From assembly GCA_905250025.1 (NCBI GenBank), contig CAJNOJ010000001.1, forward strand, positions 310,001-374,000: a DNA stretch of 64,000 bases. The letters are read 5' to 3'. The DNA comes from Adineta ricciae. Lineage: Eukaryota > Rotifera > Eurotatoria > Adinetida > Adinetidae. The position numbers and the translations under genes are program-made. Within the stretch, counting starts at the first letter, position 1. Each line of letters starts with the position of its first letter. Below the pieces are notes generated by a model. The model made no database searches, was not told where the DNA came from, and saw only the letters and a program-made list of their open reading frames with translations. This document shows positions 11,933-43,787 of this stretch, piece by piece.

Positions 11933-13232
11933 CTAAGTTAATTTACCATAAAAAGCCATAGACGCTACTCCACACATGTTACCAGAATCTTTTGCTAATC
12001 GCAGATATCCATGCTCACCCCATTTTGTTCCCCAGGAATTCTTAATGATCCAATAAGGCATCTTCAGAGCATTGTCATAACCATAACCAACGACGACCAT
12101 AGCATGATCCATATCTTTTCGATGAGTGGGACAGTTTTTGATTTGAAGTACCCCTGATTTGTAAAACATAAAAAGACGCGATTCTGCATCGAGACCAATA
12201 AACAATGGACCGTAATTGACTAGTGCTTCAGCCATGGTTTTTTCATCGCCCTCAGGAATTTCACCATATTGAATATTACCAAGTTGAACTTCATTGAGAC
12301 CATTTATTTTGCAAGTTTGCTTTTGTGTTGCAAAAGGATACGATGCTTCAGTTGCTATCTTCCCACCTTGTCCTGATAAGTACTGAACACTTGGCGGAAA
12401 GTTTCCACCGCGACAACCGTTGTTTCCATTACTTGAACAATCGATTATTTGTTGAGCACTAAACTCAATAACTGTTGTTGAATTTGTTTTCATAGCATAG
12501 AGCGTTTCCATGATGGTCGCTGTAGCCAATGCATAGCAACATCCGCATTTGAGTTGGTTTTTCACGCTACTAATAGCAATCTTTGTGCGCCAGTCAAATA
12601 TCGTCACAGGCTGACCTGGTTTATTATTTCCGTGAATTAAGTCTCGAAACCAATCGAGAAGAAAGCGTTTATTCTTTATCCGCCTTCGATTCCAATTTCG
12701 TTTCAATCGTTTGACATGGTAATGATGTTGAGAAAGCTTTTTTGAACTACGTCGGATTGAGTGATCCTTGTCGTCTTCAATCAACTCTCGTCGTGCACTT
12801 GTTGACGGAATCAAACCTTTTTTCAACGAGTTAAATTCTTCCATTGTCCAATCAGCGAAATCATTCAATTCTAATTCGAACGTACTCAATCGTTCCAAAT
12901 TGGATTCAACTATATAGAAAAGATGGTCGCGAAATATACGCAAACGTTGTTTTTCTTCCTCTAAAAGACGCAAAAATCACTGTTTAGTAAAACTCAATTC
13001 AATCCACACGATACAAACCAATCGATGAATAAGCTCGGCCATATTTCGACTTAAAAAATGACCAGATTTGTCCAATACTCGAATCATTCAAGCTCAATTT
13101 GCCCTCGATTTTATATTTTGCGGCATCAACAAAACTGTCGATATAATCTTGTAAAGACGCACCACCAAAAAGCTCTTCACTCGGCGTACACAAACCGATG
13201 AGAAGAATCACAATATATAACATTCGATTCAT
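11933..13232 (-). CDS. Papain-family (cathepsin L-like) cysteine protease
   Basis: Two exons, 13232..13019 and 12960..11933, join in phase 1 to 413 residues. A signal peptide (MNRMLYIVILLIGLC) is followed by an I29 inhibitor propeptide containing YSSIEEEKQRLRIF and LNDFADWT. A long basic insert with R/K clusters separates this from the mature enzyme. The catalytic set is present: oxyanion Gln and nucleophile Cys in NQLKCGCCYA (Cys at about residue 213), His in DHAMVVVGYG (about 357) and Asn in KNSWGTKWG (about 379). The usual CGSCW is here CGCCY, with Ser to Cys and Trp to Tyr changes beside the nucleophile. It should be secreted or lysosomal, activated by removal of the propeptide. Confidence 0.9.
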
Positions 13233-15735
13233 GTTTATACCTTGATTTTTGCTATATGATTACAAACATGGATATAAATACGACTCTTTCTGCTTTCGTA
13301 TTCGAAAAACCACTTTCCCTTCTTGAGTCAATATGTGAAATTCGACAAGAAAAGTATTGATCAAACAAACACGAAATCAGTTATGATGCTAATCCAGTTA
13401 TTCATACTTTTGTGAATAAGTATATTGATTAAATTTTGCGAATGGATGACATTTTTTTTTCAGTACATGTTAACGAAGAAAATTATGCTTGAATTATTCT
13501 TAAGCATTCGGCTCGTTCCGATTCATTTCCTTCCTCGATTTGAATTCAAACTAATTTGATGAATCTCAGTTCATAAGTCTAATCAATTAGCAAGTGTAGG
13601 TGGCAATTGCCGACATCACGCGAAACTTTTCCGATTGATGTCTACTGACGGCTAGATTTATTCTTATTCATTCACTTGTTGTATGAATAGAGAATAACTA
13701 TTCATCTGAAACAAGAACGTATTTACTTTTTCAAACCTTGAATGTCCTACCCCAGTCACTGATTACATTAAGAATTATTTCTGCCTGTCGGTAATTAGAA
13801 ATGTTAGCTGAATGTCACTGTTGCCGATGATGAGCTTGATGTAGACGTCATAGTACTTTATGTTTGACCTACACAACATATCTACACCCATAAACTAGAT
13901 TGCGTCCAAATCGTAAGTACAGATATATTCGTCATTGTATTTTGAATTTTAATCTGCCTGATTGTAGGAAAAAAATAATTTAACTATTTTCCTGTTGAGT
14001 CATAAATAAATGAATACAATTAATATTTCATTCGATAGACTGAATAATAATTCTATCTCTCAAATAAAAACAGGCAATTGATGGATATACTATTGAATAG
14101 GCGACTAGTTCTTTTTTTGTAAGTCAACGGAAGGTAAGACTAAAATCAATCGATTGATCACTTAGAATAATCAGATAGTCAGGGTTAGACTTTTACATAT
14201 GAAAAGTCTTTTGATTTTCAATTCATATCATGTATCTTGATGACATTTCGAAATAAACGATAATGAATAATGATAGAAAACCAGCACTCATTCATCGGAT
14301 TTTCTTTTTCGCGCATCACGGAACATCCTACGCATTTATTAAGTAAAACATAGATTGTAAAAATAGACAAGATTAGCGGAATTTCCATTTGCATTATGAT
14401 GTCCTATTGTTCTTGACGAGCTGTCGCTACTATTTTACTTATCGAATCTCCATCATCACTCGTTGTTGATGATGATGATGTTGTTGTTGTTGTTGGCTTT
14501 TTTTTTAGAACATCTAGTCAACCAACTTTCCTGTATACATCAGAAAGAGAAGCACATCAAGACCTCTTATTGACATGATTAGCAACTGTCATTGTTTTGA
14601 AATATATCCATTGATCCTTAGCGAAGATCCAACTTGAACCTCTATTTTTACAACAGAACAATGAAGGGTGTTAACTTAGACTGATTGCTTGCCATCATCA
14701 TTATCTATAACCGAAGGCACCATTTCGAGTAATACGAATACATCATTATTCTTTGAGACGTATCATTGTTTGTTCAACGACAAAGCGAAGATAGAAAAGT
14801 ATAAGGAAAGCAGCTGTGTTATGTATGATACTGGAATAGATCGCTAAATGAGACATGAGAAAGTAGACATAACATTTTTGGCGAGAAAATGGCATCTTTA
14901 TCTACAAGGTATCGATCTTAACATTATCAATAAATAGAGAATGATTAGTTTGTCTTTGTGTCTAATTAGAAATTCTATTTAATTGACGCTATATATCATC
15001 GAAACAGAAGAAGATGAGGGTGTTTTATTGATAATTTGTGACATCAGAATAATTCCTCGAGTTTTAGAGAGAAAGAGAGAGAGAAATTGTATATGTCTGT
15101 AGTTTGGATTACATTCTATTTATACAAGAAAGATGATGACGTAAGTGGTGGTAATAGAGAATTATTTATGGATTTATGCAAACTATAAAAGTGTCATTAT
15201 TCGAAGATCTTGTATTGATGATTGGAATCGATTCTAATTGATTTTCTTTTCTTATTAAAAATATCTTTTCGAGGTAAATACAAAGCGTGATATTCAACTA
15301 AAAAACAAACTTTATATTTTAACTCCTATTTTTGACGACTAACATGCAAAAAAGATGTGTTTCTCTTTGCTTGCCCTCTTTCCCATTTTCTTCTGCTTCT
15401 CTTTCTCTAGTTCTTTACTTCGAGCACTTTTTCCTTTTATCATTGTCGTCGCCATTATTCTCTTGTCATCGTTATTATATGACTATTGCAATCATAGTAC
15501 TCGCCTTACTAATGGGATTGGAATCGACGTTCTGTCCGGGACCGGAGATCAAGACAGGATAGCAGAGCACATCGTACGTCATTGATGAGCAACAGAAACA
15601 CTTATTTTCTCTTTTTTTTTCTTAAAAGAAACTCTTCTCTCAGACTCAAATACTTTTCTCACCACATCCTACTCGAATGCTAATGATTATTATAGATTAT
15701 AATTACCTATGAACATAGACATAACCTGATCAGTG
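13233..15735. other. Long intergenic stretch, no gene seen
   Basis: About 2.5 kb of AT-rich sequence. A trinucleotide tract of GATGATGAT and GTTGTTGTT lies at 14460-14500, and short GA runs lie near 15070. Overlapping pyrimidine-rich frames at 15330-15585 encode only low-complexity Ser/Phe/Leu and look like chance. The right end should include the promoter and 5' leader of the receptor gene. Confidence 0.6.
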
Positions 15736-17291
15736 ATGGATATCATTGAGATGATTGATAACACCACAGTAACCGATAAACAAGGCGACGGCATGGACGA
15801 TGGATTGAAATTTGGTATTGCGAAAATATGTTTGTTTAGTACATTTTTTGCACTTGGTCTTATTGGTAACTCTCTTGTGTTAATTGGCATCGGTCTCAAT
15901 AAGGGCATGCAAACATCTACTAATTTGTTAATCTTCAATTTGGCACTTGCGGACATCTTGTTCATTATAGTTTGTATTCCAACAACTTTATTTAGTTTTT
16001 TTGGTCGCTGGCCATTTGCCGAAATTGGTTGTAAAATCGGTAGGTGTAAATCATTTTTCAGATCAGTTTTCACATGTTGATTGAAATCTTTCCTAGCACA
16101 ATTTATCAATCATTTGTCAGCTTTCATGAGTATCTATTTACTTGTATTTATGTCTATCGATCGTTATTTTGCTGTTGTACATGCTATTGATTCGATTTCA
16201 AATTATCGCACTACGAAGAATACAACGATCTCAATTATGTAAGAGTGCTTTTTCTTCTGTAGCAGAAATCGAATTTTTGGGTGGATGTCTCTTCTTTTAG
16301 AGTGCTTTGGCTAATAGGAATAAGTATATGCGCACCTATTGGTTCCTTATTTACAGTTATTGAATTCGGATCACCGAATTCCATGTATTGTCTCTTGTGT
16401 TACTTTAAACCGGAGATGAGTAATGTTTCAAATTTGAACAATGCAACGAATACCACCGAAATTGGAACGTTACCGATTGAAGCGAGTTTATATTGGATTT
16501 GTTTTGTTATTTTTCTCTATGCATTACCGTTGACAATCATTGTTATTCTGTACGGTTTCATGCTAAAATTTCTACGTGGCGCTCGTGGTCAATCTGTGGG
16601 CAAAAGTAAACGACGTGCTACACGAATGATTTTAGCTGTTATTCTAACATATGCATTGTGTTGGTTCTTTATGCAACAATTATTCATTTCGAATATCATC
16701 CTTTCGAACAATACGAGTCATCATTTCGCCACTTATATCGATATTTTGACAACGATTGCAAATGTGTTTGCTTACCTAAATTCGGTATGTAAATCAAAGC
16801 GTTTCATCAGTATTCAATCTTGTGATTTTTAGTGTACAAATCCTATTCTATATGGATTCATGTCGAAAAATTTTCGTTCGTCGTTTATTGATCTACTTTG
16901 CTGTCGGTATTCGAAACGAAATCTGTTTGGACCAAATGAAAGCATGAGGGCTCGAAGAGCACTTGATCAAAATAATAATCAGCGGCATTCATCAAATTGT
17001 AAAAGTGATTATTTAGTACGGACATCTAATGCGTCGCGTTTCACTCAATTGACTCCAATGATAACAACGAGTGGACCAACAACATCGCCATCGTTGTCTC
17101 GTCTTGCCAATGAATTATCTCCCTTGTACAATCCCAATCACGAAAGAAAAATGTCATCCGACAATGATAGTTCACAATATATTTCAGTTGAATTAAGTGA
17201 AACATGTCGACGACATATTCCCAGTGATCATTCACCGGTAGACTCCTATTCTTCATTTGAATCAAAACCTATCGAGGTGCTATGTAAATAA
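15736..17291 (+). CDS. Rhodopsin-family peptide GPCR (allatostatin A/galanin type)
   Basis: Four exons (15736..16039, 16097..16238, 16301..16784, 16833..17291) join to 462 residues. TM1 has GNSLVLIGI; TM2 has TNLLIFNLALADI; a TM3 Cys lies in EIGCK. DRYFAVVHA is the DRY motif at the end of TM3. TM7 ends in CTNPILYGF, the NPxxY variant. An extracellular-loop cysteine pair (CLLC) sits before TM5, with glycosylation sites NVSN and NNATN nearby. The long Ser-rich tail has many potential phosphorylation sites. The TNLLIFNLALAD and AVVHA blocks are closest in my judgement to allatostatin A, galanin or related receptors; the ligand is unknown. The track-style GTG start is replaced by the ATG at 15736. 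Confidence 0.88.
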
Positions 17292-17844: not shown

Positions 17845-17943
17845 CGCTGCGAGTAGGATTCGAACCTACGCGGGAGAACCCATCTGATAGCTTGACACTC
17901 GTGTGATTCAAGTCAGACGCCTTAACCACTCGGCCATCACAGC
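17845..17943 (-). tRNA. tRNA-Ser (TGA) with an intron
   Basis: The minus strand gives acceptor stem GCTGTGA/TCGCAGC with discriminator G, A box TGGCCGAGTGG and B box GGTTCGAAT. The anticodon stem TCTGA/TCAGA holds loop CTTGAA plus an 18-nt insert directly after position 37, so the anticodon is TGA. The insert contains TCAAG, which can pair with the anticodon region CTTGA, as expected for a spliced tRNA intron. The long variable arm (TGGG/TCCC) fits serine rather than the intron-bearing tRNA-Leu(CAA). Confidence 0.9.
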
Positions 17944-18037: not shown

Positions 18038-18139
18038 CGCTGCGAGTAGGATTCGAACCTACGCGGGAGAACCCATCTGATTACTATGCATCATTTTCAT
18101 GATTCTAGTCAGACGCCTTAACCACTCGGCCATCGCAGC
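18038..18139 (-). tRNA. tRNA-Ser (AGA) with an intron
   Basis: Same body as the TGA gene 95 bases away, with acceptor GCTGCGA/TCGCAGC. The anticodon loop reads CTAGAA followed by a 20-nt insert before TCAGA, giving anticodon AGA. The insert differs completely from that of the TGA copies, while the exon parts are almost identical. Confidence 0.88.
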
Positions 18140-18688: not shown

Positions 18689-19040
18689 TTAGCCAACACA
18701 TGAAATTTCTCCATTAGCAATTGTGACAACGCCATTACCACATTGAATAGCTAAAATAAAGATACATCCATCACCTGTCTTCAAAACAAGGCTAGTTAGT
18801 CGCTATGATACTTACATTGTCGGCGAACACGATGATTTTCAGGTAATGGTGATGATGATGCCGATGGTTGTTCTGTATCTAAACATACACAATAAAACAG
18901 TTATGTGCACAAGATATGAGTGTGCATGGAAACATACGGTCGAGAAGTGGTTTGCGATCAGTTGCAGCTGCATTGCTTTGATGAACAGCAAAGATGATCA
19001 TGGTGCACAAGAGTAAGCAGTAGACACTGAATGAGTTCAT
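18689..19040 (-). CDS. Secreted two-cysteine peptide precursor, copy A
   Basis: Three exons, 19040..18938, 18878..18816 and 18750..18689, join in phase 1 to 75 residues. Exon 1 encodes a signal peptide (MNSFSVYCLLLCTMII, then HQSNA) and the start of a propeptide. Exon 2 encodes a Ser/Pro-rich linker ending in a basic RVRR processing site. Exon 3 encodes the core: SIQCGNGVVTIANGEISCVG, with two cysteines 14 residues apart. Furin-like cleavage after RVRR would free a peptide of about 21 residues, likely one disulfide loop with two Asn-Gly turns. I know no named family with this core. Near-identical copies lie at 29208-29559 and 43067-43421. Confidence 0.85.
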
Positions 19041-19128
19041 GGTAGTTGATTGAGAGATTGAGAGTGAGTTGAGCAGTTGAAGAGAAGTTGTGACGAACGA
19101 ATGATGGTGTATGTTGAGATAGCATGGC

Positions 19129-19375
19129 TATTTATATGGTGAAAAAGAGGTGCAGAGACCAATGAAGTGAAGATGGGAAATTATGATTTTCTCCCTTCTA
19201 TCAAGTGAACAACAGGAGTGCGCGTTTGACACATAGTCATGAGTCATGTTCATTGCTTTCTTGTCTACCAATGAAATCAATGATTCGAATCGGTAATACA
19301 TATATGTTTGTCCATGAACAGAAGGAAAGGAGGGAATGTGGGACAAATAAACACGAGAAAGAAAAAGTGACGTCA
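19129..19375 (-). promoter_or_regulatory. Promoter of copy A: TATA, AP-1 and CRE sites
   Basis: Read toward the gene, a palindromic TGACGTCA is at 19368-19375, a TGAGTCA AP-1 site at 19240-19246 and TATAAATA at 19129-19136. The TATA box lies about 90 bases before the ATG. The same three sites occur in the same order upstream of copy B and copy C. Confidence 0.6.
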
Positions 19376-19461
19376 TTCTCATGTGCTTTGAGAAATCGTA
19401 TGCGGTGGATTTTACTGTTCAACATCCGGATATCTATGAGATTAACAAACTAAGTGTTTCA

Positions 19462-19788
19462 CCGCCCATTCCATCGCAAGCATTCGTCGCTCAACTGAAC
19501 TCACTATACCTTCTTCATACTCGCCATCCTCAATCATCTTCTTCAATTCAGTCTCCGATCAACACCAATTATAGACGCTCTTGTAGTGTGTATCAGATAT
19601 TATCATCATTTCGTCATGCTCTTCTTTCATTCACAAACAATTCAACTACAGTGCAGTTTCAGTTTATTTATCAAATCGTCTATGTTCACATCACACATCT
19701 GTGTATTCATCATCAAGAAATACAAAACAAAAAACAAGTTTCGAGTTGAGAAAGTTCTTCTGTTGGATGGATTGTAATAGATCGTCGA
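19462..19788. other. Spacer, no gene seen
   Basis: Lies between the promoter of copy A and the 3' end of the next peptide gene. Serine/histidine-rich open frames on the plus strand look like low complexity and have no supporting features. Confidence 0.5.
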
Positions 19789-20346
19789 TCAACATGATAC
19801 TCCACCACCTTGCACCATACCCCAGTTGCATACTCTCACTTTCAAAAACAAAACAGATACATCTTTGATATCTGAAATCTGATTAACACTTACCTTGCAC
19901 ATCACCAGTACCCATGTTCGATCCATCCACTACAACACAAAAATAACACATATGAAAGGTTCGATCATAATCAACAGATCAAGCAGAGCTCTTCAACACG
20001 ACATATTGGCAAGGATACTATGTTTCCTCCATAGAGATGTTAGTGAGCACCCCTTTTACCTGTGATCGAAGATAGAAGCAATGTTATTCACTTACGAGAG
20101 ACTATACCACCGAATCCACGCTTTTGTCTATGTAACTCTGTCTCGGCGGCAGTTGGTGGCTCGTCAGCTAAAGCACAAATCATTGATGAAAGCATTGGAA
20201 GATATACTTGTGTGCTTACTAGTGAGCTCGATCGGTGAGTGATTGAGTGCTTGGAATTTGGTGTCGAGTGGCGCTGCATTGATGTGATGCAAAACACAGA
20301 TCATTATGGTTACCGATAATAAACAACGAACGGCGAATGAATTCAT
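19789..20346 (-). CDS. Divergent secreted peptide precursor with two-Cys tail
   Basis: Four exons, 20346..20220, 20167..20096, 19929..19894 and 19838..19789, all in phase 1, give 94 residues. The signal peptide MNSFAVRCLL...HHINA shares the MNSF start and the NA cleavage end with copy A. A propeptide of about 30 residues ends in RQKR, a dibasic or furin site. A glycine-rich stretch (GFGGIV) follows. The last exon ends in VCNWGMVQGGGVSC, two cysteines with 11 residues between them. The final GxVSC resembles the GEISC end of the other copies, but the Asn-Gly turns are gone. It is a diverged paralogue with the same exon plan. Confidence 0.75.
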
Positions 20347-20429
20347 GGTAAGAGATAACGTTAAGGTGATCAAGTAAGGTAATTTGCAAGTGAATCGATA
20401 ATAAAAGTTATGGTGGCTGGATGTGTGTA

Positions 20430-20594
20430 TATTTATAGGTGAGTCAGCTAGCGTTTTTCTCTGTTATTGGGCGAGAGTACTCTTAGAGAGAGAGAGAGAA
20501 ACATATCATTGAATGTCATTATAAGTGTAGAAGTGGGAGATTCTGTTTCTCTCCCTCACATCAAACGTTCGACGACAAGCAGTGTCATGACTCA
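20430..20594 (-). promoter_or_regulatory. Promoter of divergent peptide gene: TATA with adjoining AP-1
   Basis: TATAAATA (minus strand) is at 20430-20437, about 85 bases before the ATG. A TGAGTCA starts only three bases upstream, at 20440-20446. A second AP-1 site, TGACTCA, is at 20588-20594. Confidence 0.5.
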
Positions 20595-20653
20595 TATTGA
20601 AATGTGAGAAAAAGTAATCCCAATAATGTTCAGCTAGTTACTGATATTAGTTA
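20433..20653. repeat. 221-nt promoter block, first copy
   Basis: This block runs from TTATAGGTGAGTCAG to TGATATTAGTTA. It recurs at 25593-25813, with no difference that I could see by eye. It holds two AP-1 sites and a GA dinucleotide run. Confidence 0.85.
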
Positions 20654-20654
20654 N
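20654..20654. other. Single N, probable assembly join
   Basis: One ambiguous base stands exactly between two copies of the promoter block. It looks like a gap placeholder of unknown true length. Confidence 0.75.
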
Positions 20655-20823
20655 TTATAGGTGAGTCAGCTAGCGTTTTTCTCTGTTATTGGGCGAGAGT
20701 ACTCTTAGAGAGAGAGAGAGAAACATATCATTGAATGTCATTATAAGTGTAGAAGTGGGAGATTCTGTTTCTCTCTCTCACATCGAACGTTCGACGACAA
20801 GCAGTGTCATGACTCATATTGAA
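20655..20823. repeat. Promoter block, second copy (shorter)
   Basis: Matches the first 169 bases of the block at 20433 with only a few substitutions, then diverges into the upstream region of the gene at 21214. Its copy next to the N may be a true duplication or the other allele. Confidence 0.8.
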
Positions 20824-20905
20824 AACACGTTCACTTGCAGTTAGCTGAGCGATAGGTGTGTTAGTTGAGGGGAGTAGAAAAGAAATCGAAAAAGGAGTGA
20901 CGTCA
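20810..20905 (+). promoter_or_regulatory. AP-1 and CRE sites upstream of the 21214 precursor
   Basis: TGACTCA is at 20810-20816 and TGACGTCA at 20898-20905, about 310-400 bases before the ATG at 21214. Confidence 0.45.
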
Positions 20906-21213
20906 TCAACGGTCAGTGAATTGGTGATGTTGGCTGATTCAACGTTTCTAACATTAGTTTCTACAAAGCAGATAAAGATACGCTTCTCTTGCCGTATATC
21001 TTTCTATTCTTCTCATAACAAATACGTCGTTGGAGACAAACACTATTTATTCTTTGTGTCCATTCGTCCTATCCGCACGATAGATATGAAATAAAGAATA
21101 ACAACATTTAGTTGTGTTTCAGTTGTGTACAGAAAAACATCTCTTATTTATGTCTAATCACATTCATTGATCTCTCTTTTCATTTAGTTCCTTACACTCG
21201 TGTAACAATTAGC

Positions 21214-22083
21214 ATGCATTGGTTCCGCCCTCACTTCCTCGTATCATGTAGCGTCTTGTTTCTTGTCTTTGGTGGTTTGGACAGCGCTTCGATCATGATC
21301 GGACCAAATGGTATTCAATTGAGTGGACAAAACGGCAATGATCAGTTTATCAACATTGCTTTGCCAATTAATGGTTTCAAAGTACAAATTAGCAGTGACG
21401 GAGGAGCAGTTTCTAGTTCGGTGGTGAATGTACCAGTGATAGAAACAGCTAATTACCGAGTAGATGCATCTTCAGCTGGAATAGGTACGCAACAAGCTGC
21501 GTCTGCTGGGACTGTCAGATGGTATCCTCAAATGTATTCGAACCTCGGTTTTACCGCTAATACGTCAATCAATAGGCAAGCCGATCCTTCTGTCAACACT
21601 CAACTCGAAACTCATCGCAGTTCACAAACACATTCGTCACCGAACGTTCAGGTTCAATCTCCAAATCGCTTCACTGTCAATGAAGCTATACCTCATGTAT
21701 TCGTCTCTTCACCTGCTCCTCAAGTCCAAAGTATGTCAACTCTCAAATATACCTTCTCACGCTGTTTCAGTCATTCCACAGCACTTCACACACCACCCTC
21801 ATCTATTTCCTTCTTTGTGTTCTAGGCAAACCTTCAAACAGCAATGGATGTGAAACACAAGGTAAGTTTCACTCTTCGTCTCCTTTCATTCCATCGAACA
21901 TGATCAGCAACTAACTTTTGTCTTTTTCTCTGCTCTGTCGTTTTAGTTGGTTCAAATGGTGAAAAAAGTGAGTTTGATGGATAATGAGAGAGAGCGAGGA
22001 TGATTGTGTTTGTTGTAAATGTAGCGATCAGCATGGCTAATGGAAATGTGAACATTGTTGGTCAAAGTTTGTCATGCAACTAA
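21214..22083 (+). CDS. Large secreted precursor with family-type C-terminus, copy 1
   Basis: Four exons (21214..21730, 21826..21861, 21947..21967, 22025..22083), all phase 1, give 210 residues. The signal peptide is MHWFRPHFLV...GGLDSAS. The first exon then encodes a region with QFINIALPINGFKVQIS, a linker and a Ser/His-rich segment. Two tiny exons add a first cysteine (NGCETQ) and SNGEK. The last exon ends in TISMANGNVNIVGQSLSC, which repeats the T-I-x-x-N-G signature of the small peptides. No basic cleavage site stands out before the tail. The product should be secreted; its function is unknown. A paralogue lies at 26184-27068. Confidence 0.75.
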
Positions 22084-22435
22084 ACAAACAATACTCGACG
22101 ATGATGATCACGAAACTCATGCTCATATGCGCTCTTTTCTTCTTCTTCTTCTTCTTTTTTCTTGTACAATGAATTCTAATGTGAAATTAAATAAACTAGA
22201 GTATAAATGATAAACTCAAGTTCGAGTAACATCAGACTTTGACCTTACACATTGAGTCAATCGTTTCCATGTGTGACTTTGAATAAATACTCCCATGCAT
22301 TACGGTTGCATACAAATAGTATTTGTTTTGTTGCTTATGTTTTGGAAAATGAATTCAAAATAATGCATCGCATCAGCCAGCTCAAGTTCGTGATTTGTGT
22401 TCGGATATGAGCTTTACAATTTCGGCCTCTTTTAA
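22084..22435. other. 3' flank of precursor copy 1, no gene seen
   Basis: The first 100 bases, with a TTC repeat and AATAAA-like ends, match the flank of the second copy at 27069. After that the two loci diverge. Confidence 0.55.
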
Positions 22436-22439
22436 TTTG

Positions 22440-23420
22440 AAAGGTCGGTGATGCGACTGTTACCATTACTGGCTTGCTGTTGGGTTGTTCATACCACTTG
22501 TACCTATTGCTGCAGGATCATTATTAGCAACGAGTGAAGTTGATTTTCATACATATTCACATGAATGTAATCATTGATATTAGGTATTACTGTCGGTACC
22601 TACAGTGCTGTGCGCAGTTCGGGCAAACTTATCGACCGGGCTAACTATGACCAGTCAATAAATCCTGTTGACAAGAAGGAATCGTTGGTATCGATGTGTC
22701 GTTTACTGTAATGAGAGTGAAAAAAGTGCGTTGTCTTTCTTTATCGATCAGGAAGTAAAATAATATAGGATGATTTGCGTTATGTATTAGTACATCACAG
22801 TAATGGCTGAGCAAGGCAATCATGTGAATCAATTTACTCGAGTAACTGTTATTGTAGCTCTTTTCAGCAGTTTTGGAATCAGTGCTATTGGCATGAGTGT
22901 TGCAAGTGCGAATACAATTGTGAAAATACAGAGTACAAAGCTTAATTTTGTCTTCGCACATTGAAAACAAAAATTCAAATGTTTGTAGAGTGAAATAGTG
23001 ACTCCATTAGAATTCGTTCAAGCGGGTGCAAGTCTCCTATTCTATTTTAATCAAGAATTGAACATTCAGACTGCTAGCGATATCATAAAGAATTTGAGTT
23101 TGTTATTCTTATTGATTCTATTGACAAAAACGTTTGATGCGATGGAGTCTTTCATGATCGAAGATAAAAAAAAAACAGCATTCAATGCACAAATTAAAAA
23201 AAGCAGGAAGGTGCCTGCAGATTGGCAAATCGCAAGACCGGTTCGATTTAATTGACTTTTCAATACCAAAGTTGACTGCCAGTTTGTTTAAATCAAATGT
23301 ACCCAGAGTTCAAAATTCATGAAACGAAATTCACAACTATCGGTAGTAACAATGAATTTCCAATTCGACATGAATTTAAAACATTAGGTGTTGAACACAT
23401 TGTAAAAACGACACAGTGAT
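22440..23420 (+). pseudogene. Decayed DUF4781-like gene
   Basis: Broken plus-strand coding pieces appear in order: hydrophobic IPLVPIAAGSLLAT (about 22485), GITVGTYSAVRSSGKLIDRA (about 22583), then an SFGISAIGMSVASANTIVKI segment (about 22872), then TPLEFVQAGASLLFYFNQ (about 23000) and IGSNNEFPIRHEFKTLG (about 23340). Stops and frame breaks separate them. The pattern of small-residue helices and the PLEFVQ...SLLFF signature recall the DUF4781 family of invertebrates, whose function is unknown. The family name is from memory and is tentative; the loss of an intact frame is direct observation. Confidence 0.5.
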
Positions 23421-23747
23421 CAATTCCAGAAGGGCAGTTATACAAATAACGCCGAACGTAGCAATTTGTATTATGGTTAGTATCCTACGAGAGAGATTTT
23501 CATTAGCATGAAAAAAGGCATCTTTTAATAAATAGAAAATCAAGATGAGAATGCCCGAAAGTGCATAAAATGAAAAGAAAATTACAAAGCGCTGATAATA
23601 ATGTTGCGTATACGACGTCTTTTAAATTAGAAATTTCACGTCCGGTTTCCTGCCTAATTACATTTATTGGAAACACAGCGCTCAAATGTGCATCTTAGAT
23701 CAGCGAAAGCCATTACTTAATGCGTTCCAGTGACCTGTTCCCATTTC

Positions 23748-23797
23748 AGCTGTTCAATATGCCAATGGTTAAATTACAGTTAGCAAAGGAAAGATCG
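23748..23797 (+). pseudogene. Relic of a two-Cys peptide core exon
   Basis: After a TTTCAG acceptor, the sequence follows the last exon of the 27779 gene base for base in most positions. The first core cysteine codon TGT has become TAT and a CAA codon has become TAA, so it cannot code a core. No signal-peptide exon is found upstream. It marks an older, lost copy in the cluster. Confidence 0.65.
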
Positions 23798-24725
23798 GGT
23801 ACGAAGCGTGAAATATGAATGTCGTGGACAAATCGATACAGAAGGGAACTTGTGGAATGAAATCGACGATATAAAGATTTGAATGAGACGGATTTATGGA
23901 AGTGAACTTTAACTTACACATATTGGTCGTACCAAATGTCATGTGAAAAAGCTCATATCGATCGGTAGAGTTACCGTAGGCATTGAGGACGTTGTAAAAC
24001 AGAGAGAAAAATGTGTAACAGTCGCTGAAACTAGTCGAACTCTTATTTGTCTATATAGATGTGACACGACTACATAGGTCCACCGGCCTGCAGTTAAGTT
24101 CCGTGTTGTTAAACTTATCATGGTAGGAGAGGACTAACTATCTTACTGTATAATTACGCAGCGGGGTGATTAAAGTGATACGAACAGTTATGAATCTTGC
24201 ATTTGATTTGGGTTCGTCAATTCTTTCTATTGAACAGATATCCTTTTGTTTCTTTCGGTCATTGACGAAAGAAAGCAGGAAAACTGTACTTTGTGGTTGT
24301 AGATTATTTTGAAACTGATTCTGAATCTATTTGATGAACTATGATTTGCAAGACGTCCAATAAGTAATCAATTTATTGATCGCGCCAACTGCTTTGGTAA
24401 TTGAAATCTAGTGTCTTTATTTCTATTTTTCAAGATATCCACATCCAGCAATATATATTTAAATGGCAAATAGAAATATAAATCACATCAACCGATCGGT
24501 CCTCACATTCCGAATAATACTCATCTACTTCAGCATTCACGCTGCCACTCAAATAGTTTCATCTTTCAACGAATTCATAAAAAAGCGTTTTCCAATTTCA
24601 CTTTCAGCACTTTATTTAGAACGACTTAATTGAAAGCGATCAAGAGAAAGCAAACAAATTTATGTAACAAAAGTGGGAAGAAGATAGTTTGTGAAATCGA
24701 ATTGGTTTGGTATTCTACAGTTGAC
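23798..24725. other. Spacer, no gene seen
   Basis: No supported coding frame. It may include further decayed remnants, but none can be named. Confidence 0.5.
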
Positions 24726-25193
24726 TTATTTGCCGGCGCATGAGATGTTACCATCAGTGATTGTGACAACACCATTACCACATTGGATATCTGAAACAAA
24801 AAGATACCCGTCAGATATAGCGGAAACTAACCAAAGTAATTCTTCCTATACTTACTCTCGCTGCCAAATTCATCGAATCCGTCAACACTTGCAGCTAAAA
24901 CACAAACCAGTATCCATTTAATCATCAAGTACTCTTCTTTTTCCTGCATCGGAAACCACATGACTACCACTTACCAGCAATAGCAGCTCGTCGAGCACGA
25001 AGCTTTTCAACCAATGGCGATGACTGTTTTGTATCTAGAAATAGACAAGAAGTGCTAGACATTCGCGATTTTTTACGTTCAGATATATACCATCAAGAAG
25101 TGGTTTGCGATCAGTTGCAGCTGCATTGCTTTGATGAACAGCAAAGATGATCATGGAGCACAAGAGTAAGCAGTAGACACTGAATGAGTTCAT
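24726..25193 (-). CDS. Secreted two-cysteine peptide precursor, copy B (extra exon)
   Basis: Four exons, 25193..25091, 25034..24975, 24895..24857 and 24790..24726, join in phase 1 to 88 residues. Exon 1 is nearly identical to copy A. Exon 2 differs and contains LRARRAA, a basic processing site. An additional 39-nt exon encodes an acidic AASVDGFDEFGSE piece not present in copy A. The core reads NIQCGNGVVTITDGNISCAGK. So the signal exon and core exon are conserved while the middle has changed. Cleavage after RARR would leave the acidic piece attached unless trimmed further. Confidence 0.82.
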
Positions 25194-25273
25194 GGTAGTT
25201 GATTGAGAGTGAGTTGAGCAGTTGAAGAGAAGTTGCGACGAACGAATGATAGTGTATGTTGAGATAGCATGGC

Positions 25274-25507
25274 TATTTATATGGTGAAAAAGAGATGCAG
25301 AGACCAATGAAGTGAAGATGGGAAATTTCGATTTTCTCCCTGAGCTCATACAGTTCAACGCGATAAAATCATGAGTCATGTTCATTGCTTTCTTGTCTAC
25401 CAATGAAATCAATGATTCGAATCGGTAATACATATATGTTTGTCCATGAACAGAAGGAAAGGAGGGAATGTGGGACAAATAAACACGAGAAAGAAAAAGT
25501 GACGTCA
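25274..25507 (-). promoter_or_regulatory. Promoter of copy B: TATA, AP-1 and CRE sites
   Basis: TATAAATA is at 25274-25281, TGAGTCA at 25372-25378 and TGACGTCA at 25500-25507. From 25370 to 25591 the sequence is close to identical with 19238-19459 upstream of copy A. Confidence 0.6.
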
Positions 25508-25591
25508 TTCTCATGTGCTTTGAGAAATCGTATGCGGTGGATTTTACTGTTCAACATCCGGATATCTATGAGATTAACAAACTAAGTGTTT

Positions 25592-25592
25592 N
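25592..25592. other. Single N, probable assembly join
   Basis: Left of the N is sequence shared with the copy A promoter (around 19459); right of it is the 221-nt block from 20433. The N therefore joins two duplicated pieces. Confidence 0.75.
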
Positions 25593-25813
25593 TTATAGGT
25601 GAGTCAGCTAGCGTTTTTCTCTGTTATTGGGCGAGAGTACTCTTAGAGAGAGAGAGAGAAACATATCATTGAATGTCATTATAAGTGTAGAAGTGGGAGA
25701 TTCTGTTTCTCTCCCTCACATCAAACGTTCGACGACAAGCAGTGTCATGACTCATATTGAAATGTGAGAAAAAGTAATCCCAATAATGTTCAGCTAGTTA
25801 CTGATATTAGTTA
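25593..25813. repeat. 221-nt promoter block, third copy
   Basis: Same sequence as 20433-20653. It lies upstream of the large precursor gene at 26184 and includes AP-1 sites at 25600-25606 and 25748-25754. Confidence 0.85.
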
Positions 25814-26183
25814 AGGCAACTTTTCAGCATCGTCCTTTACTAACCAATAGACGATAAACTTCCGTTGACATCCATGTTTTTACTCTTTTCTTTTTCGAAA
25901 CAGATAAGACATCTACTGTTACAAATATCGATTACAACGGACTCCACTCTCCCAGGCATGTTCGTCTATACGATCATCTTCTTTCTATCTCTCGTTTTCG
26001 TCGTCCGATTCGCGCGATAGACAAACGATCGAAACACTTCTTTCTGGCACATATCGAATAGAAAAACACAACAACATTTACCCGTGTGTCACTTGTGTAT
26101 AAAGAAACGTTAAAGATCAATATCTTATCACATTCATTCGTCTTTATTTTCATTTAGCTCCTCTTACTCGCATAACAGCCATC

Positions 26184-27068
26184 ATGCATTCGTTACCCGT
26201 TCACTTCTTCAGCTCATGCAGTCTCTTGCTTCTCCTCGCTTGTGCTTCAAACGCTGCTCCACTCACGCTCAGACCCAATCACGTTCAGACCGCTGCAACC
26301 AAAATTGGCAATACTCAGTTCATCAGTGTTACTGTGCCAATCAACGGTTTCGAAATACAGATCTCCACCCATGATGCAGCTGCACCAACTTCCGTGGTCA
26401 GTGTGCCAATGGCAGAAACACTCTCTTCACAGGTTCGTGTTTCGACAGTTACAATAGATGAGCCAGAAGCTGTACCTGATGATAATGGTGCATGGTTTGC
26501 TCAAGTCAATCCTCAACTACATTCAAAACTTCGTCTTCCCACCACCACGTCATCCAATCGTCAGGTCGATTCTTCTGTCAACACTCAACTCGAAGCTCAT
26601 CGCAGTTCACAAACACATTCGTCACCGAACTTTCGGGTTCATTCTCCAAATCGCTTCACTGTCAATGAAGCTATACCTCATGTATTCGTCTCTTCACCTG
26701 CTCCTCAAGTCCAAAGTATGTCAACTCTCAAATATACCTTCTCACGCTGTTTCAGTCATTCCACAGCACTTCACACACCACCCTCATCTATTTCCTTCTT
26801 TGTGTTCTAGGCAAACCTTCAAACAGCAATGGATGTGAAACACAAGGTAAGTTTCACTCTTCGTCTCCTTTCATTCCATCGAACATGATCAGCAACTAAC
26901 TTTTGTCTTTTTCTCTGCTCTGTCGTTTTAGTTGGTTCAAATGGTGAAAAAAGTGAGTTTGATGGATAATGAGAAAGAGCGAGGATGATTGTGTTTGTTG
27001 TAAATGTAGCGATCAGCATGGCTAATGGAAATGTGAACATTGTTGGTCAAAGTTTGTCATGCAGCTAA
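26184..27068 (+). CDS. Large secreted precursor with family-type C-terminus, copy 2
   Basis: Four phase-1 exons (26184..26715, 26811..26846, 26932..26952, 27010..27068) give 215 residues. The signal peptide is MHSLPVHFFSSCSLLLLLACASNA. The conserved QFISVTVPINGFEIQIS segment corresponds to the one in copy 1. The first 400 coding bases differ substantially from copy 1, while the rest, including three introns and the 3' flank, is almost identical. The C-terminus ends in TISMANGNVNIVGQSLSC plus one serine. A TATAAAG lies at 26098-26104. Function unknown; probably secreted. Confidence 0.75.
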
Positions 27069-27454
27069 ACAAACAATACTCGACGATGATGATCACGAAA
27101 CTCATGCTCATATGCGCTCTTTTCTTCTTCTTCTTTTTTCTTGTACAATGAATTCTAATATAAAATCAAATAAAATACCACAGAAAATGTGAAAACACAA
27201 CCCTCGGTTCGATCCTTGATCATAAACTGCTCTGTTTTATCATAACAGTGCTCTACTCTTCATAGTTCATTCGATTTTTGTTGACAGCCATTTCTTATCT
27301 ATAAGACAAACATCGACTGACTGAGAAATAAAGAAACGTTTTTAGCGAAAAGATCTGTTGTTTCGCATTTCCGGAGATATTGACGCTCTTTCTATAGAAT
27401 ACCTTCACAAGTAAATGTAGCAACTGGATATAGTCGACACAACCAGGGTGAGAG
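27069..27454. other. Spacer, no gene seen
   Basis: 3' flank of precursor copy 2 followed by the upstream region of the 27779 peptide gene. No coding frame supported. Confidence 0.55.
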
Positions 27455-27668
27455 TGACGTCACTTTTCTTTCATGTCTATGTTTCTCTTGCGCATGAACG
27501 AATATATGTGTTTGTCGTCGATTCGAATGGTCGATTTCATCGGTGAGAACGAAGAACTGAACATGAGTCATGACATTGATCGTGCTTCAATCGTGTTCTC
27601 TTTCATTGAAAGGGATAAAATCGAAATTTCCCATCTTTACCTCGATAGTTTTGCCTCATGTATAAATA
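27455..27668 (+). promoter_or_regulatory. Promoter of copy C: CRE, AP-1 and TATA sites
   Basis: TGACGTCA is at 27455-27462, TGAGTCA at 27564-27570 and TATAAATA at 27661-27668, about 110 bases before the ATG. The site order and rough spacing match copies A and B although the sequence between the sites has largely changed. Confidence 0.6.
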
Positions 27669-27778
27669 CGCCTGCTCCTTCAACACACCTCCCCATTCAT
27701 TCATCTCGACTTCTCCTCATCCGATCAACTGCTCAACGCATTCACACACACACACACTCTCTCACTCAATCAACTATC

Positions 27779-28246
27779 ATGAACTCATTCAGCGTCTATT
27801 GTTTATTATTGTGTTCCATGGTCATCTTTATTGTTCACCAAAGCAGTGCAGCCAGAATTCCAGCCAGTATCGACACAGCTGCTGCTGCTGCTGGTAAGTC
27901 ATACCATTCTAATTATGATAGACCATGAAAGACAGAAGTACTTTCCCGAATTCTATTTACTTATTTGTTGTCATCTTTTAGACGACGGTGACGATGATGA
28001 TGGTAGCAGTGCTGCTGCAGCTAGTAGTGTGGATGCAACTGGTGCTGCTGCTGCTGCTTCTGCAGTCAGTCGCCCTCGCGCAACCGTTCGTGTTCAACCC
28101 AAACCTAGACCCAGACCAAGACCCAGCAGTGAGTGCTCTGATCGCTCATTTTCATCACACGTACACCCTCTGTTTCTATTTCAGGTGTTCAATGTGCCAA
28201 TGGTCAAATCACAATCACCAACGGAAAGATCGAATGTAAAAAATAA
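27779..28246 (+). CDS. Secreted two-cysteine peptide precursor, copy C (Pro/Arg-rich)
   Basis: Three phase-1 exons (27779..27893, 27982..28128, 28185..28246) give 107 residues. Exon 1 repeats the signal peptide MNSFSVYCLLLCSMVI, ending HQSSA. Exon 2 is long and of biased composition: an acidic DDGDDDDG run, alanine-rich repeats, then VRVQPKPRPRPRPS, a proline-arginine pattern like that of insect proline-rich antimicrobial peptides. The last exon gives the core SVQCANGQITITNGKIECKK. No classical RxxR site precedes the core, so processing is uncertain. The core alone is basic, unlike copy A. Confidence 0.82.
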
Positions 28247-29207
28247 AAGATCAAGCCACTATACTTTACAAACTATTGGTTTCAGTCTCTCTCTCTCTCT
28301 TTCTTTTTGCGAAATTGCTTGTTTCCTGTTGATTTACGACGTTTGTCTCATTGTGAATAAAGCATTGTGTTTTGTGAAGAGTAAAACATACTTTTGTTTA
28401 TATCAAATGACTGAATGATCGTCGAATGAGGAAAGCATTCGAATATGAGATGTAAATGTCATTAATGACTTCATACGGAACAGAGTTTTCAGAACGAAAT
28501 CGGTGACAGAGAGAGTTGAGTGCAGCGAGAAATGGTGGAAAAGATCACTAGCTTGTGTGAGAAAGAAAGAAAGAAAGAAAGAACGAAAGAGTGCTTATGA
28601 CTACTCTTTTCTGACAGCACTGGTGGGAGACATGCATATTTGTAAACTGATAATATAAACACATATCTCCGATCGTCTATGATCCAGCCTAGTGCTGCTC
28701 AACTTTTCCTGATGTAAGAGAAGTGATTATCTCGCTGTCCAGTTGGACAGCAAACTGATGAAACTGCTACAGACAGTTTTGGTACTAACTAGAATAAGAG
28801 ACCGAGACAACTTGGATGTTCATCAAGCGGTTCAGGTGTACATGGAAAATGAAGTCAAGGAACACTTATGTCCGATCACGAATGGAAAATAAATGTTAGT
28901 TCATCATGCGTCAATATTCGTATTCTGTTGTTTATATTACACTTCTCTTTTTCCTAATGAATGTTATGTTGGAAGAGATTTATACCATCATTATTTCTGT
29001 TCTTGTAAGTCACTTTAAAGTATGTAAACTCAACTCTACATTCACAGAAACGTTGAAATAGTCTGATTTTTGGATTCTTTCGCAAACGCTACTTTTATTG
29101 AGAGATACACAAACGATGGTAATCAAGAACAAACACATTCCACGCAAAAAAGTTGAAAATGAATAGTTTATGAAATGAATATTGTTTGATATTCCGCGCT
29201 TGTTCTA
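28247..29207. other. Spacer with GAAA microsatellite, no gene seen
   Basis: About 960 bases without a gene. A run of GAAA units is at 28560-28590. The last 50 bases match the 3' flank of copy A. Confidence 0.55.
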
Positions 29208-29559
29208 TTAGCCAACACATGAAATTTCTCCATTAGCAATTGTGACAACGCCATTACCACATTGAATAGCTAAAATAAAGATACACCCATCACCTGTCTT
29301 CAAAACAAGGCTAGTTAGTCGCTATGATACTTACATTGTCGGCGAACACGATGATTTTCAGGTAATGGTGATGATGATGCCGATGGTTGTTCTGTATCTA
29401 AACATACATAATAAAACAGTTATGTGCACAAGATATGAGTGTGCATGGAAACATACGGTCGAGAAGTGGTTTGCGATCAGTTGCAGCTGCATTGCTTTGA
29501 TGAACAGCAAAGATGATCATGGTGCACAAGAGTAAGCAGTAGACACTGAATGAGTTCAT
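29208..29559 (-). CDS. Secreted two-cysteine peptide precursor, copy D
   Basis: Three phase-1 exons, 29559..29457, 29397..29335 and 29269..29208, give a 75-residue product that reads the same as copy A. Introns and 3' flank are also almost identical to copy A, so the duplication is recent or the copies are allelic. Processing should occur after RVRR, giving the QSIQCGNG...ISCVG peptide. Confidence 0.85.
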
Positions 29560-29650: not shown

Positions 29651-29742
29651 TATTTATATGATGGAGAGAGCAGCAGAAACCAGTGGAGTGAAGATGGGAA
29701 ATTATGATTTTATCCCTTCTATCAAGTGAACAACATGAGTCA
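29651..29742 (-). promoter_or_regulatory. Promoter of copy D: TATA and AP-1
   Basis: TATAAATA is at 29651-29658 and TGAGTCA at 29736-29742. The CRE found upstream of copies A to C is not present here, because the homology ends before that point. Confidence 0.5.
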
Positions 29743-29992
29743 TGTTCATTGTTTCTCTTCTTCAACCAATGATTCGAATCACCGAGACGATGCATATGTT
29801 AGTGCATGAACAGAGGCAAAGAGGGGAATGTGGGAGAAAGAGAGATGAAATAGTAAGGTTGTCTAGTACAAAGTCTCTGTATTGACGATTTCATCTAACG
29901 GTTTAACGTCAAATTTGTGTAAACTATATTTTATTTAGTGTTATGCTTATAATACATGAATGTTGGAAGCAAAATATTACGAAAATATCAAC

Positions 29993-42764: not shown

Positions 42765-42863
42765 GCTGTGATGGCCGAGTGGTTAAGGCGTCTGACTTGA
42801 ATCAAAGAAGTGTCAAGCTATCAGATGGGTTCTCCCGCGTAGGTTCGAATCCTACTCGCAGCG
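42765..42863 (+). tRNA. tRNA-Ser (TGA) with an intron
   Basis: The mature parts match the gene at 17845-17943, and the 18-nt insert after position 37 differs from that copy only in its first half (TCAAAGAAGTGTCAAGCT). A T-rich pol III terminator follows at about 42865. It lies 200 bases from another member of the peptide family, as does the tRNA-Ser pair upstream, but in the opposite relative orientation. Confidence 0.92.
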
Positions 42864-43066: not shown

Positions 43067-43421
43067 CTACTTGCCAACACATGAAATTTCTCCATTAGCA
43101 ATTGTGACAACGCCATTACCACATTGAATAGCTAAAATAAAGATACACCCATCACCTGTCTTCAAAACAAGGCTAGTTAGTCGCTATGATACTTACATTG
43201 TCGGCGAACACGATGATTTTCAGGTAATGGTGATGATGATGCCGATGGTTGTTCTGTATCTAAACATACATAATAAAACAGTTATGTGCACAAGATATGA
43301 GTGTGCATGGAAACATACGGTCGAGAAGTGGTTTGCGATCAGTTGCAGCTGCATTGCTTTGATGAACAGCAAAGATGATCATGGTGCACAAGAGTAAGCA
43401 GTAGACACTGAATGAGTTCAT
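43067..43421 (-). CDS. Secreted two-cysteine peptide precursor, copy E
   Basis: Three phase-1 exons, 43421..43319, 43259..43197 and 43131..43067, give 76 residues. It matches copies A and D, with one extra Lys after CVG because the stop codon differs. The RVRR processing site and both core cysteines are intact. Upstream sequence is cut off by the N at 43451, so its promoter cannot be read. Confidence 0.83.
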
Positions 43422-43450
43422 GATAGTTGATTGAGAGATTGAGAGTGAGT

Positions 43451-43451
43451 N
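43451..43451. other. Single N, probable assembly join
   Basis: The N separates two inverted copies of the same peptide gene. Such a junction is typical of a collapsed or misjoined inverted repeat. Confidence 0.75.
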
Positions 43452-43787
43452 TCTACTGCTTACTCTTGTGCTCCATGATCATCTTTACTGTTCATCAAAG
43501 CAATGCAGCTGCAACTGATCGCAAACCACTTCTCGACCGTATGTTTCCATGCACACTCATATCTTGTGCACATAACTGTTTTATTATGTATGTTTAGATA
43601 CAGAACAACCATCGGCATCATCATCACCATTACCTGAAAATCATCGTGTTCGCCGACAATGTAAGTATCATAACGACTAACTAGCCTTGTTTTGAAGACA
43701 GGTGATGGATGTATATTTGTTTCAGCTATTCAATGTGGTAATGGCGTTGTCACAATTGCTAATGGAGAAATTTCATGTGTTGGCTAA
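43452..43787 (+). pseudogene. Two-cysteine peptide gene, copy F, truncated at its 5' end
   Basis: Reads from inside exon 1 (43452..43538) through exon 2 (43598..43660) to exon 3 (43726..43787), in the same frame and phase as copy A. The first codons of the signal peptide are missing left of the N. The core SIQCGNG...ISCVG is intact. The truncation may be an assembly effect rather than a real loss. Confidence 0.7.

What the first reader, a model, noticed from the sequence alone, without database searches (positions are those of the whole stretch)
18689..29559. Cluster of undescribed small secreted peptides with a two-cysteine core
At least four complete genes in this interval (18689, 24726, 27779, 29208), plus two more at 43067-43787, share a signal-peptide exon and a last exon encoding C-x-N-G-x-[VI]-T-I-x-[ND]-G-x-I-x-C. 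The Asn-Gly pairs suggest two tight turns inside a disulfide loop. Variable propeptides, basic processing sites in copies A, B, D and E, and recent duplications are what one expects of a defence or signalling peptide family. I know of no family with this core, and novelty is an inference.
Basis: partly seen in the sequence, partly recalled or inferred. Interest (0 to 1): 0.88.

Follow-up and report, generated by a model that had tools for sequence, protein, structure and literature searches.

The report
Co-regulated cluster of secreted two-cysteine peptides
A tight cluster of related animal genes makes small secreted peptides that each end in a similar two-cysteine core and mostly share one unusual promoter element; they matched no family in the libraries searched and look most like stress- or infection-induced defence peptides, which is not yet tested.

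Summary
Six copies of C-x-N-G-x-[VI]-T-I-x-[ND]-G-x-I-x-C sit in last exons; none occurs in 40 randomised windows. Five belong to complete genes; the sixth (43452-43787) has lost its 5' end at an assembly N.

(1) A diverged paralogue, D (20346-19789), with the same signal exon and a core two residues shorter. (2) The divergent precursors A, B and D all keep a furin-type R-x-[KR]-R site. (3) All 5 core genes whose upstream DNA is present carry a 21-bp GGGA-N13-TCCC element; it occurs 6 times in 64 kb, always in these promoters or a promoter copy, against 0.07 expected.

Core codons look under purifying selection. A low-depth AlphaFold model gives a hairpin at the second Asn-Gly only.

Pfam, NCBIfam, PDB and prokaryote/virus contigs gave nothing above threshold.

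Most likely: inducible secreted effector peptides, organised like Bomanins but not Bomanins. A peptide hormone is the main rival. No expression data were available.

The parts
18689..19040 (-). Gene A: 3 exons 19040-18938, 18878-18816, 18750-18689; 75 aa; RVRR then QSIQCGNGVVTIANGEISCVG
   Evidence: furin-type site and first core Cys located
19175..19195 (.). GGGA-N13-TCCC element of gene A promoter; AP-1-like ATGAGTCAT at 19239-19247; TATAAATA at 19129-19136
19789..20346 (-). Gene D (new): 4 exons 20346-20220, 20167-20096, 19929-19894, 19838-19789; 94 aa; RQKR; shortened core CNWGMVQGGGVSC then stop
   Evidence: a last-exon pattern written after seeing D occurs 0 times in 60 null windows; signal exon also scored by a profile that includes D
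20535..20555 (.). GGGA-N13-TCCC element of gene D promoter; AP-1-like site at 20587-20595; a second copy of this promoter, with a one-base variant of the element at 20757-20777, lies beyond the N at 20654
21214..22083 (+). Gene F: 4 exons, 210 aa, signal-like start, transcribed away from D; last exon TISMANGNVNIVGQSLSCN; kinship to the core family tentative
   Evidence: last-exon stretch at chance level in the core profile (E 9.5)
24726..25193 (-). Gene B: 4 exons 25193-25091, 25034-24975, 24894-24856, 24790-24726; 88 aa; RARR; core CGNGVVTITDGNISC then AGK
25320..25340 (.). GGGA-N13-TCCC element of gene B promoter; AP-1-like site at 25371-25379
25593..25813 (.). Copy of the D-type promoter without its gene (100% identical to 20433-20653; element at 25695-25715), cut at the N at 25592; a D-type gene is probably missing from the assembly here (inference)
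26184..27068 (+). Gene F2: paralogue of F, 4 exons, 215 aa
27612..27632 (.). GGGA-N13-TCCC element of gene C promoter; AP-1-like site at 27563-27571; TATAAATA at 27661-27668
27779..28246 (+). Gene C: 3 exons 27779-27893, 27982-28128, 28185-28246; acidic stretch, Pro/Arg-rich stretch, core CANGQITITNGKIEC then KK
   Evidence: exon 1 end corrected by eye from the sequence printed
29208..29559 (-). Gene E: 3 exons, protein identical to A
29696..29716 (.). GGGA-N13-TCCC element of gene E promoter; AP-1-like site at 29735-29743
43067..43421 (-). Gene G1: A-type copy, 76 aa, ends CVGK; about 30 bases of upstream DNA before the N at 43451, so no promoter in the assembly
43452..43787 (+). Gene G2: A-type copy, 5' end of the signal exon missing at the N

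Best explanation
The locus is a tandemly expanded family of prepropeptide genes. Each precursor enters the secretory pathway on a conserved signal exon. In A, B and D it is cut after a furin-type R-x-[KR]-R site, releasing a 21-38 residue peptide whose C-terminal end is a small core closed by one disulfide and folded at least partly as a hairpin (shown: sequence, splice structure, sites; predicted: hairpin; inferred: cleavage and disulfide). In A-type copies the released peptide would begin with Gln (likely pyroglutamate); A-type copies and B end in Gly or Gly-Lys, which suits C-terminal amidation (inferred). Transcription is switched on together through a 21-bp GGGA-N13-TCCC inverted element with an AP-1-like site close by, resembling stress- or infection-inducible promoters (element shown; trans-factor and induction inferred). 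The peptides act outside cells as host-defence effectors, by binding a microbe or neutralising its secreted factors rather than by charge-driven membrane lysis, since three of four predicted mature forms are net acidic (inferred).
For: Gene models and phase-1 introns. Core dN/dS: A-B 0.12/0.67, A-C 0.27/2.28, B-C 0.27/0.90, on 16 codons. Last exon A-B 49 of 62 aligned bases identical, against 29 of 56 and 37 of 65 in the two introns compared. R-x-[KR]-R in A, B and D; shuffled propeptides hold one in 3.4%, 3.2% and 0.6% of 20,000 trials each. GGGA-N13-TCCC: 6 matches, mean 0.07 expected, 0 of 100 shuffles reach 6; five lie in the promoters of A, B, C, D and E and one in a copy of the D promoter. 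ATGASTCAT: 8 matches against 1.21, seven of the eight in those promoters or copies. Side-chain charges -1, -4, +7, -1 for A, B, C, D (C's start was assumed). Model of the C core: strands 19-22 and 25-28 around the second NG, mean pLDDT 73.8. Clustering, short secreted peptides unlike known AMPs, and amidation parallel the Toll-induced Bomanins (PMC4411088, passages).
Against: No transcript, induction or activity data were seen. The six element matches and the furin-type sites come from related genes and are not independent; C and D are the most divergent carriers. Other blocks upstream of A, B, C and E are conserved too, so the element is not the only constrained or recently shared stretch. 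TATAAATA is not specific (15 in the window, 5 at these genes). The CRE-like TGACGTCA is not significant (4 against 1.68; 10 of 100 shuffles reach 4). Beta-hairpin antimicrobial peptides are defined as cationic (PMC13001179, passages), and A, B and D are not. The processing marks fit a hormone equally well. C has no R-x-[KR]-R site. dN/dS rests on few codons. Adineta vaga is reported to lack Toll-like receptors (PMC8609888, passages), so a Toll route to the element would be unexpected if this is a bdelloid.
Confidence: 0.42

Rival explanations
1. The peptides are hormones or neuropeptides: one cyclic, pyroglutamylated, amidated peptide per precursor acting on a cell-surface receptor.
For: R-x-[KR]-R sites; N-terminal Gln and C-terminal Gly or Gly-Lys in A-type copies; conserved core with variable spacer. 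A rhodopsin-family receptor piece lies nearby at 16263-16832.
Against: Five complete core genes plus a truncated one plus D in one window, predicted charges from -4 to +7 and different N-terminal extensions in B, C and D are unusual for a receptor ligand. The receptor's position alone is no evidence. Pfam matched no family for A, B or D and only two sub-threshold ones for C.
Confidence: 0.22
2. The peptides are structural or mucosal secretions (egg shell, glue, body or gut lining) that cross-link through their cysteines.
For: Gly/Asn-containing beta-prone cores; no confident structure for exon 1 of F2 (mean pLDDT 32.7, two-row alignment); sub-threshold hits of C to mucin-like and glue families (E 0.038 and 0.039, 14 bits against cut-offs of 35 and 31).
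Against: Exactly two cysteines in the core and furin-type release of short peptides fit a discrete ligand better; the weak C hits cover its N-terminal low-complexity part (residues 8-74), not the core.
Confidence: 0.14
3. The apparent gene number and promoter mosaic are largely assembly artefacts over one or two real genes.
For: Single Ns at 20654, 25592 and 43451 fall at the edges of near-identical blocks; A and B are 100% identical over the distal 200 bp of the promoter, up to the N at 25592.
Against: A, B, C and D differ in exons and introns and each lies in an N-free stretch, so four distinct genes are likely real. Unresolved repeats more likely hide copies than invent them (inference).
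Confidence: 0.08

Closest known systems
Drosophila Bomanins (55C cluster)
   Same: Clustered genes for short secreted peptides with a conserved core of about 16 residues, some with tails, unlike known AMPs, several reported amidated (PMC4411088, passages)
   Different: The Bomanin motif has a CXXC bend; here the cysteines are separated by 13 residues (11 in D). The paper reports orthologues only from Drosophila. Furin-type site in A, B and D here
Disulfide-closed beta-hairpin antimicrobial peptides (thanatin and ranacyclins, single disulfide; arenicin type)
   Same: Short hairpin with a cysteine pair; thanatin comes from a larger precursor, ranacyclins are amidated (PMC13001179, passages)
   Different: The class is defined as cationic; A, B and D are net acidic. 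No BRICHOS match in the precursors; that arenicin-type precursors carry BRICHOS is from search listings
Proline/arginine-rich plus cysteine AMPs of crustaceans (recalled, no call)
   Same: Gene C has a PKPRPRPRP stretch before its cysteine core and a charge of about +7
   Different: Only C has it; sequences were not compared

Membership tests
Bomanins | 16-residue motif with a CXXC bend (PMC4411088) | tested here: not met
   Cys spacing C-x13-C, or C-x11-C in D
Bomanins | Induction by infection through Toll | not testable with these tools
   No expression data; A. vaga reported without TLRs (PMC8609888, passages)
Beta-hairpin antimicrobial peptides | Cationic charge | tested here: not met
   Predicted mature charges A -1, B -4, D -1; C is +7 with an assumed start
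Beta-hairpin antimicrobial peptides | Antiparallel hairpin closed by a disulfide | tested here: inconclusive
   Hairpin predicted at the second NG of C, mean pLDDT 73.8, pTM 0.27, 3-row alignment, first 10 residues and part of the 11th intron-encoded; disulfide not examined
BRICHOS-linked AMPs (arenicin type) | BRICHOS domain in the precursor | tested here: not met
   Pfam at E<=10: no family for A, B, D; other, sub-threshold families for C, F, F2; no BRICHOS in any of the six
Amidated peptide hormones | Signal peptide, basic cleavage site, C-terminal amidation Gly | tested here: met
   Sequence features only, in A-type copies and B; signal peptide judged by eye; processing itself not tested
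Amidated peptide hormones | Receptor activation | not testable with these tools
   None

The most novel reading that the evidence does not exclude
A previously undescribed, lineage-restricted animal peptide family, co-induced through a composite GGGA-N13-TCCC plus AP-1 switch in an animal lacking Toll receptors, that protects against fungal attack by neutralising secreted toxins rather than by killing: a Bomanin-like solution evolved independently.
Probability: 0.12. Interest if true: 0.75.

Novelty: new member of a known kind. Interest (0 to 1): 0.5.

Why it matters
If the window is bdelloid, this is a candidate endogenous effector arm in animals of which one species, A. vaga, is reported to lack Toll-like receptors (PMC8609888, passages). 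A fungal-challenge RNA-seq study of two bdelloids says that it did not closely explore metazoan genes (PMC11258130, passages). Gene models, the shared promoter element and predicted masses make the question testable in existing reads.

Tried and rejected
Prokaryote genome contigs: two scans, with protein A (322 pattern stretches) and with the three-row core alignment A1 (44 stretches); none confirmed at E<=1e-3. A phage search with A gave one phage portal gene, two records of the same phage, E=0.08, 31.7% identity, taken as chance. PDB: nothing for the single A core; for the four-row profile one histone chain at E=7.9, taken as chance. Pfam sub-threshold hits: C to mucin-like and glue families, F and F2 to DUF4556 (E 0.07, 13.6 bits against 27), not accepted. 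NCBIfam: one sub-threshold hit for D (E 0.044).

Papers: a full-text search for five core strings found 0 papers. Searches on bdelloid antimicrobial peptides, rotifer neuropeptides, bdelloid secreted peptides, NF-kappaB, desiccation/immune and furin/amidation showed nothing on this family in the listings seen, some of them capped (20 of 480, 12 of 68). Searches listed Bomanin and arenicin-type papers (20 of 111, 8 of 62). Passages of the rotifer lectin paper PMC8878817 held nothing on rotifer antimicrobial peptides beyond general mention.

CRE-like sites were dropped as not significant. F and F2 as core-family members: their last exons are at chance level in the profile, so they are listed as neighbours. 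No fold search was run, since a 30-residue hairpin and a pLDDT 32.7 model would give meaningless matches. Model errors of mine: gene C's first exon ended 3 bases early (6), so the A-C and B-C exon 1 and intron 1 counts are slightly off; the C protein sent to Pfam carried one extra Gly; G2 was printed out of frame and its translation rests on the last-exon frame. None touches the core.
Full report
What was checked. The window is 37% GC. Of ten open frames scanned against Pfam, five matched: a cathepsin-type protease, a rhodopsin-family receptor piece, a SNF2-type helicase, a peritrophin chitin-binding domain, and a THOC7 hit just under its cut-off (28.5 against 28.7 bits); five matched nothing. 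This fits animal DNA. The six core matches sit where stated and are far from chance: a profile built from A, B and C finds these six at E<1e-12 with the next hit at 2.6, and the strict motif is absent from 40 Markov windows.

Gene structure. A, E, G1 and C have three exons; B, D, F and F2 have four; introns are GT..AG and phase 1 (C's donor at 27894 read). Exon 1 is signal-like (judged by eye). A profile of four signal exons (A, B, C and D, themselves in the search) finds seven strong places, at A, B, C, D, E, G1 and the truncated G2; the next hits are at E=0.31. Gene D is new: MNSFAVRCLL start, RQKR, and a last exon VRVCNWGMVQGGGVSC ending at its stop. Against B this reads as the same core with two residues removed, as if one residue were lost from each strand of a hairpin (inference). 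A last-exon pattern loosened to include D hits only the family (8 hits: the 6 core copies and 2 readings of D) and 0 places in 60 null windows; it was written after seeing D, so this is supportive, not independent.

Selection. A, E and G1 are nearly identical, introns included. The independent comparisons are A-B, A-C and B-C: dN/dS on 16 core codons is 0.12/0.67, 0.27/2.28 and 0.27/0.90, while the introns compared align at about 46-57%. Few codons, but all three comparisons point to purifying selection on the core. Exon 2 diverges, yet A, B and D each keep R-x-[KR]-R. F and F2, on the + strand between the copies, have a divergent first part (dN/dS 0.48/0.71) and near-identical 3' parts. Their link to the core family is tentative.

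Promoters. Aligning upstream DNA of A, B, C, E and D shows conserved islands, among them an AP-1-like site and a 21-bp GGGA-N13-TCCC element; other islands are shared by A, B, C and E, including part of the 5' leader. The element occurs 6 times in the window against 0.07 expected: in the promoters of A, B, C, D and E, and in a copy of the D promoter that has no gene. The AP-1-like site lies 18-43 bases from the element in the five genes (coordinates). G1 and G2 have no upstream DNA to test; F and F2 have no element of their own and at best share the D-type ones. ATGASTCAT occurs 8 times against 1.21, seven of them here. The GGGA/TCCC halves resemble kappaB half-sites (recalled, not tested). 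Duplicates are not independent, so the case rests on C and D, the most diverged carriers.

Assembly. Single Ns at 20654, 25592 and 43451 lie at the edges of near-identical blocks. At 25592 a D-type promoter ends within its TATA box and is joined to B's upstream DNA, so a D-type gene is probably missing. Copy number is best taken as a lower bound.

Structure. A three-row model of the C core, with intron-encoded lead residues, gives strands 19-22 and 25-28 around Asn-Gly, mean pLDDT 73.8, pTM 0.27. The first Asn-Gly is not in a predicted strand pair. The F2 exon-1 model is unusable (32.7).

Reading. Conserved signal and core, variable spacer, furin-type release, tandem expansion and a shared inducible-looking promoter fit an effector-peptide locus. 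The organisation recalls Bomanins, which are clustered, short, partly amidated and unlike known AMPs (PMC4411088, passages); mutants of two Bomanin genes are sensitive to a fungal ribotoxin (PMC12894722, abstract). The peptides fail the Bomanin CXXC test, and A, B and D fail the cationic test for beta-hairpin AMPs. A hormone remains possible. The published fungal-challenge RNA-seq did not closely explore metazoan genes (PMC11258130, passages) and could settle induction if these genes exist in its species.

Noticed in passing
17845-17943(-), 18038-18139(-), 42765-42863(+): Three related tRNA genes of 99-102 bp (Rfam tRNA; mutually similar) lie beside the left end of the main cluster and beside the G1/G2 pair, as if both clusters came from one duplicated segment (inference).
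   Followed up: partly
15730-17291(+): Open frames of a rhodopsin-family receptor (7tm_1 on the 16263-16832 piece) about 1.4 kb from the 3' end of gene A.
   Followed up: no
21562-22195 and 26547-27174: F and F2 jump from 52-74% to 88-100% identity per 50 columns part-way through exon 1 (96.5% over the block), as after gene conversion.
   Followed up: partly
19260-19459 and 25392-25591: A and B distal promoters are 100% identical over 200 bp up to the N at 25592: recent conversion or an assembly overlap.
   Followed up: partly
11936-12976(-): Papain-family cysteine protease with I29 propeptide.
   Followed up: no
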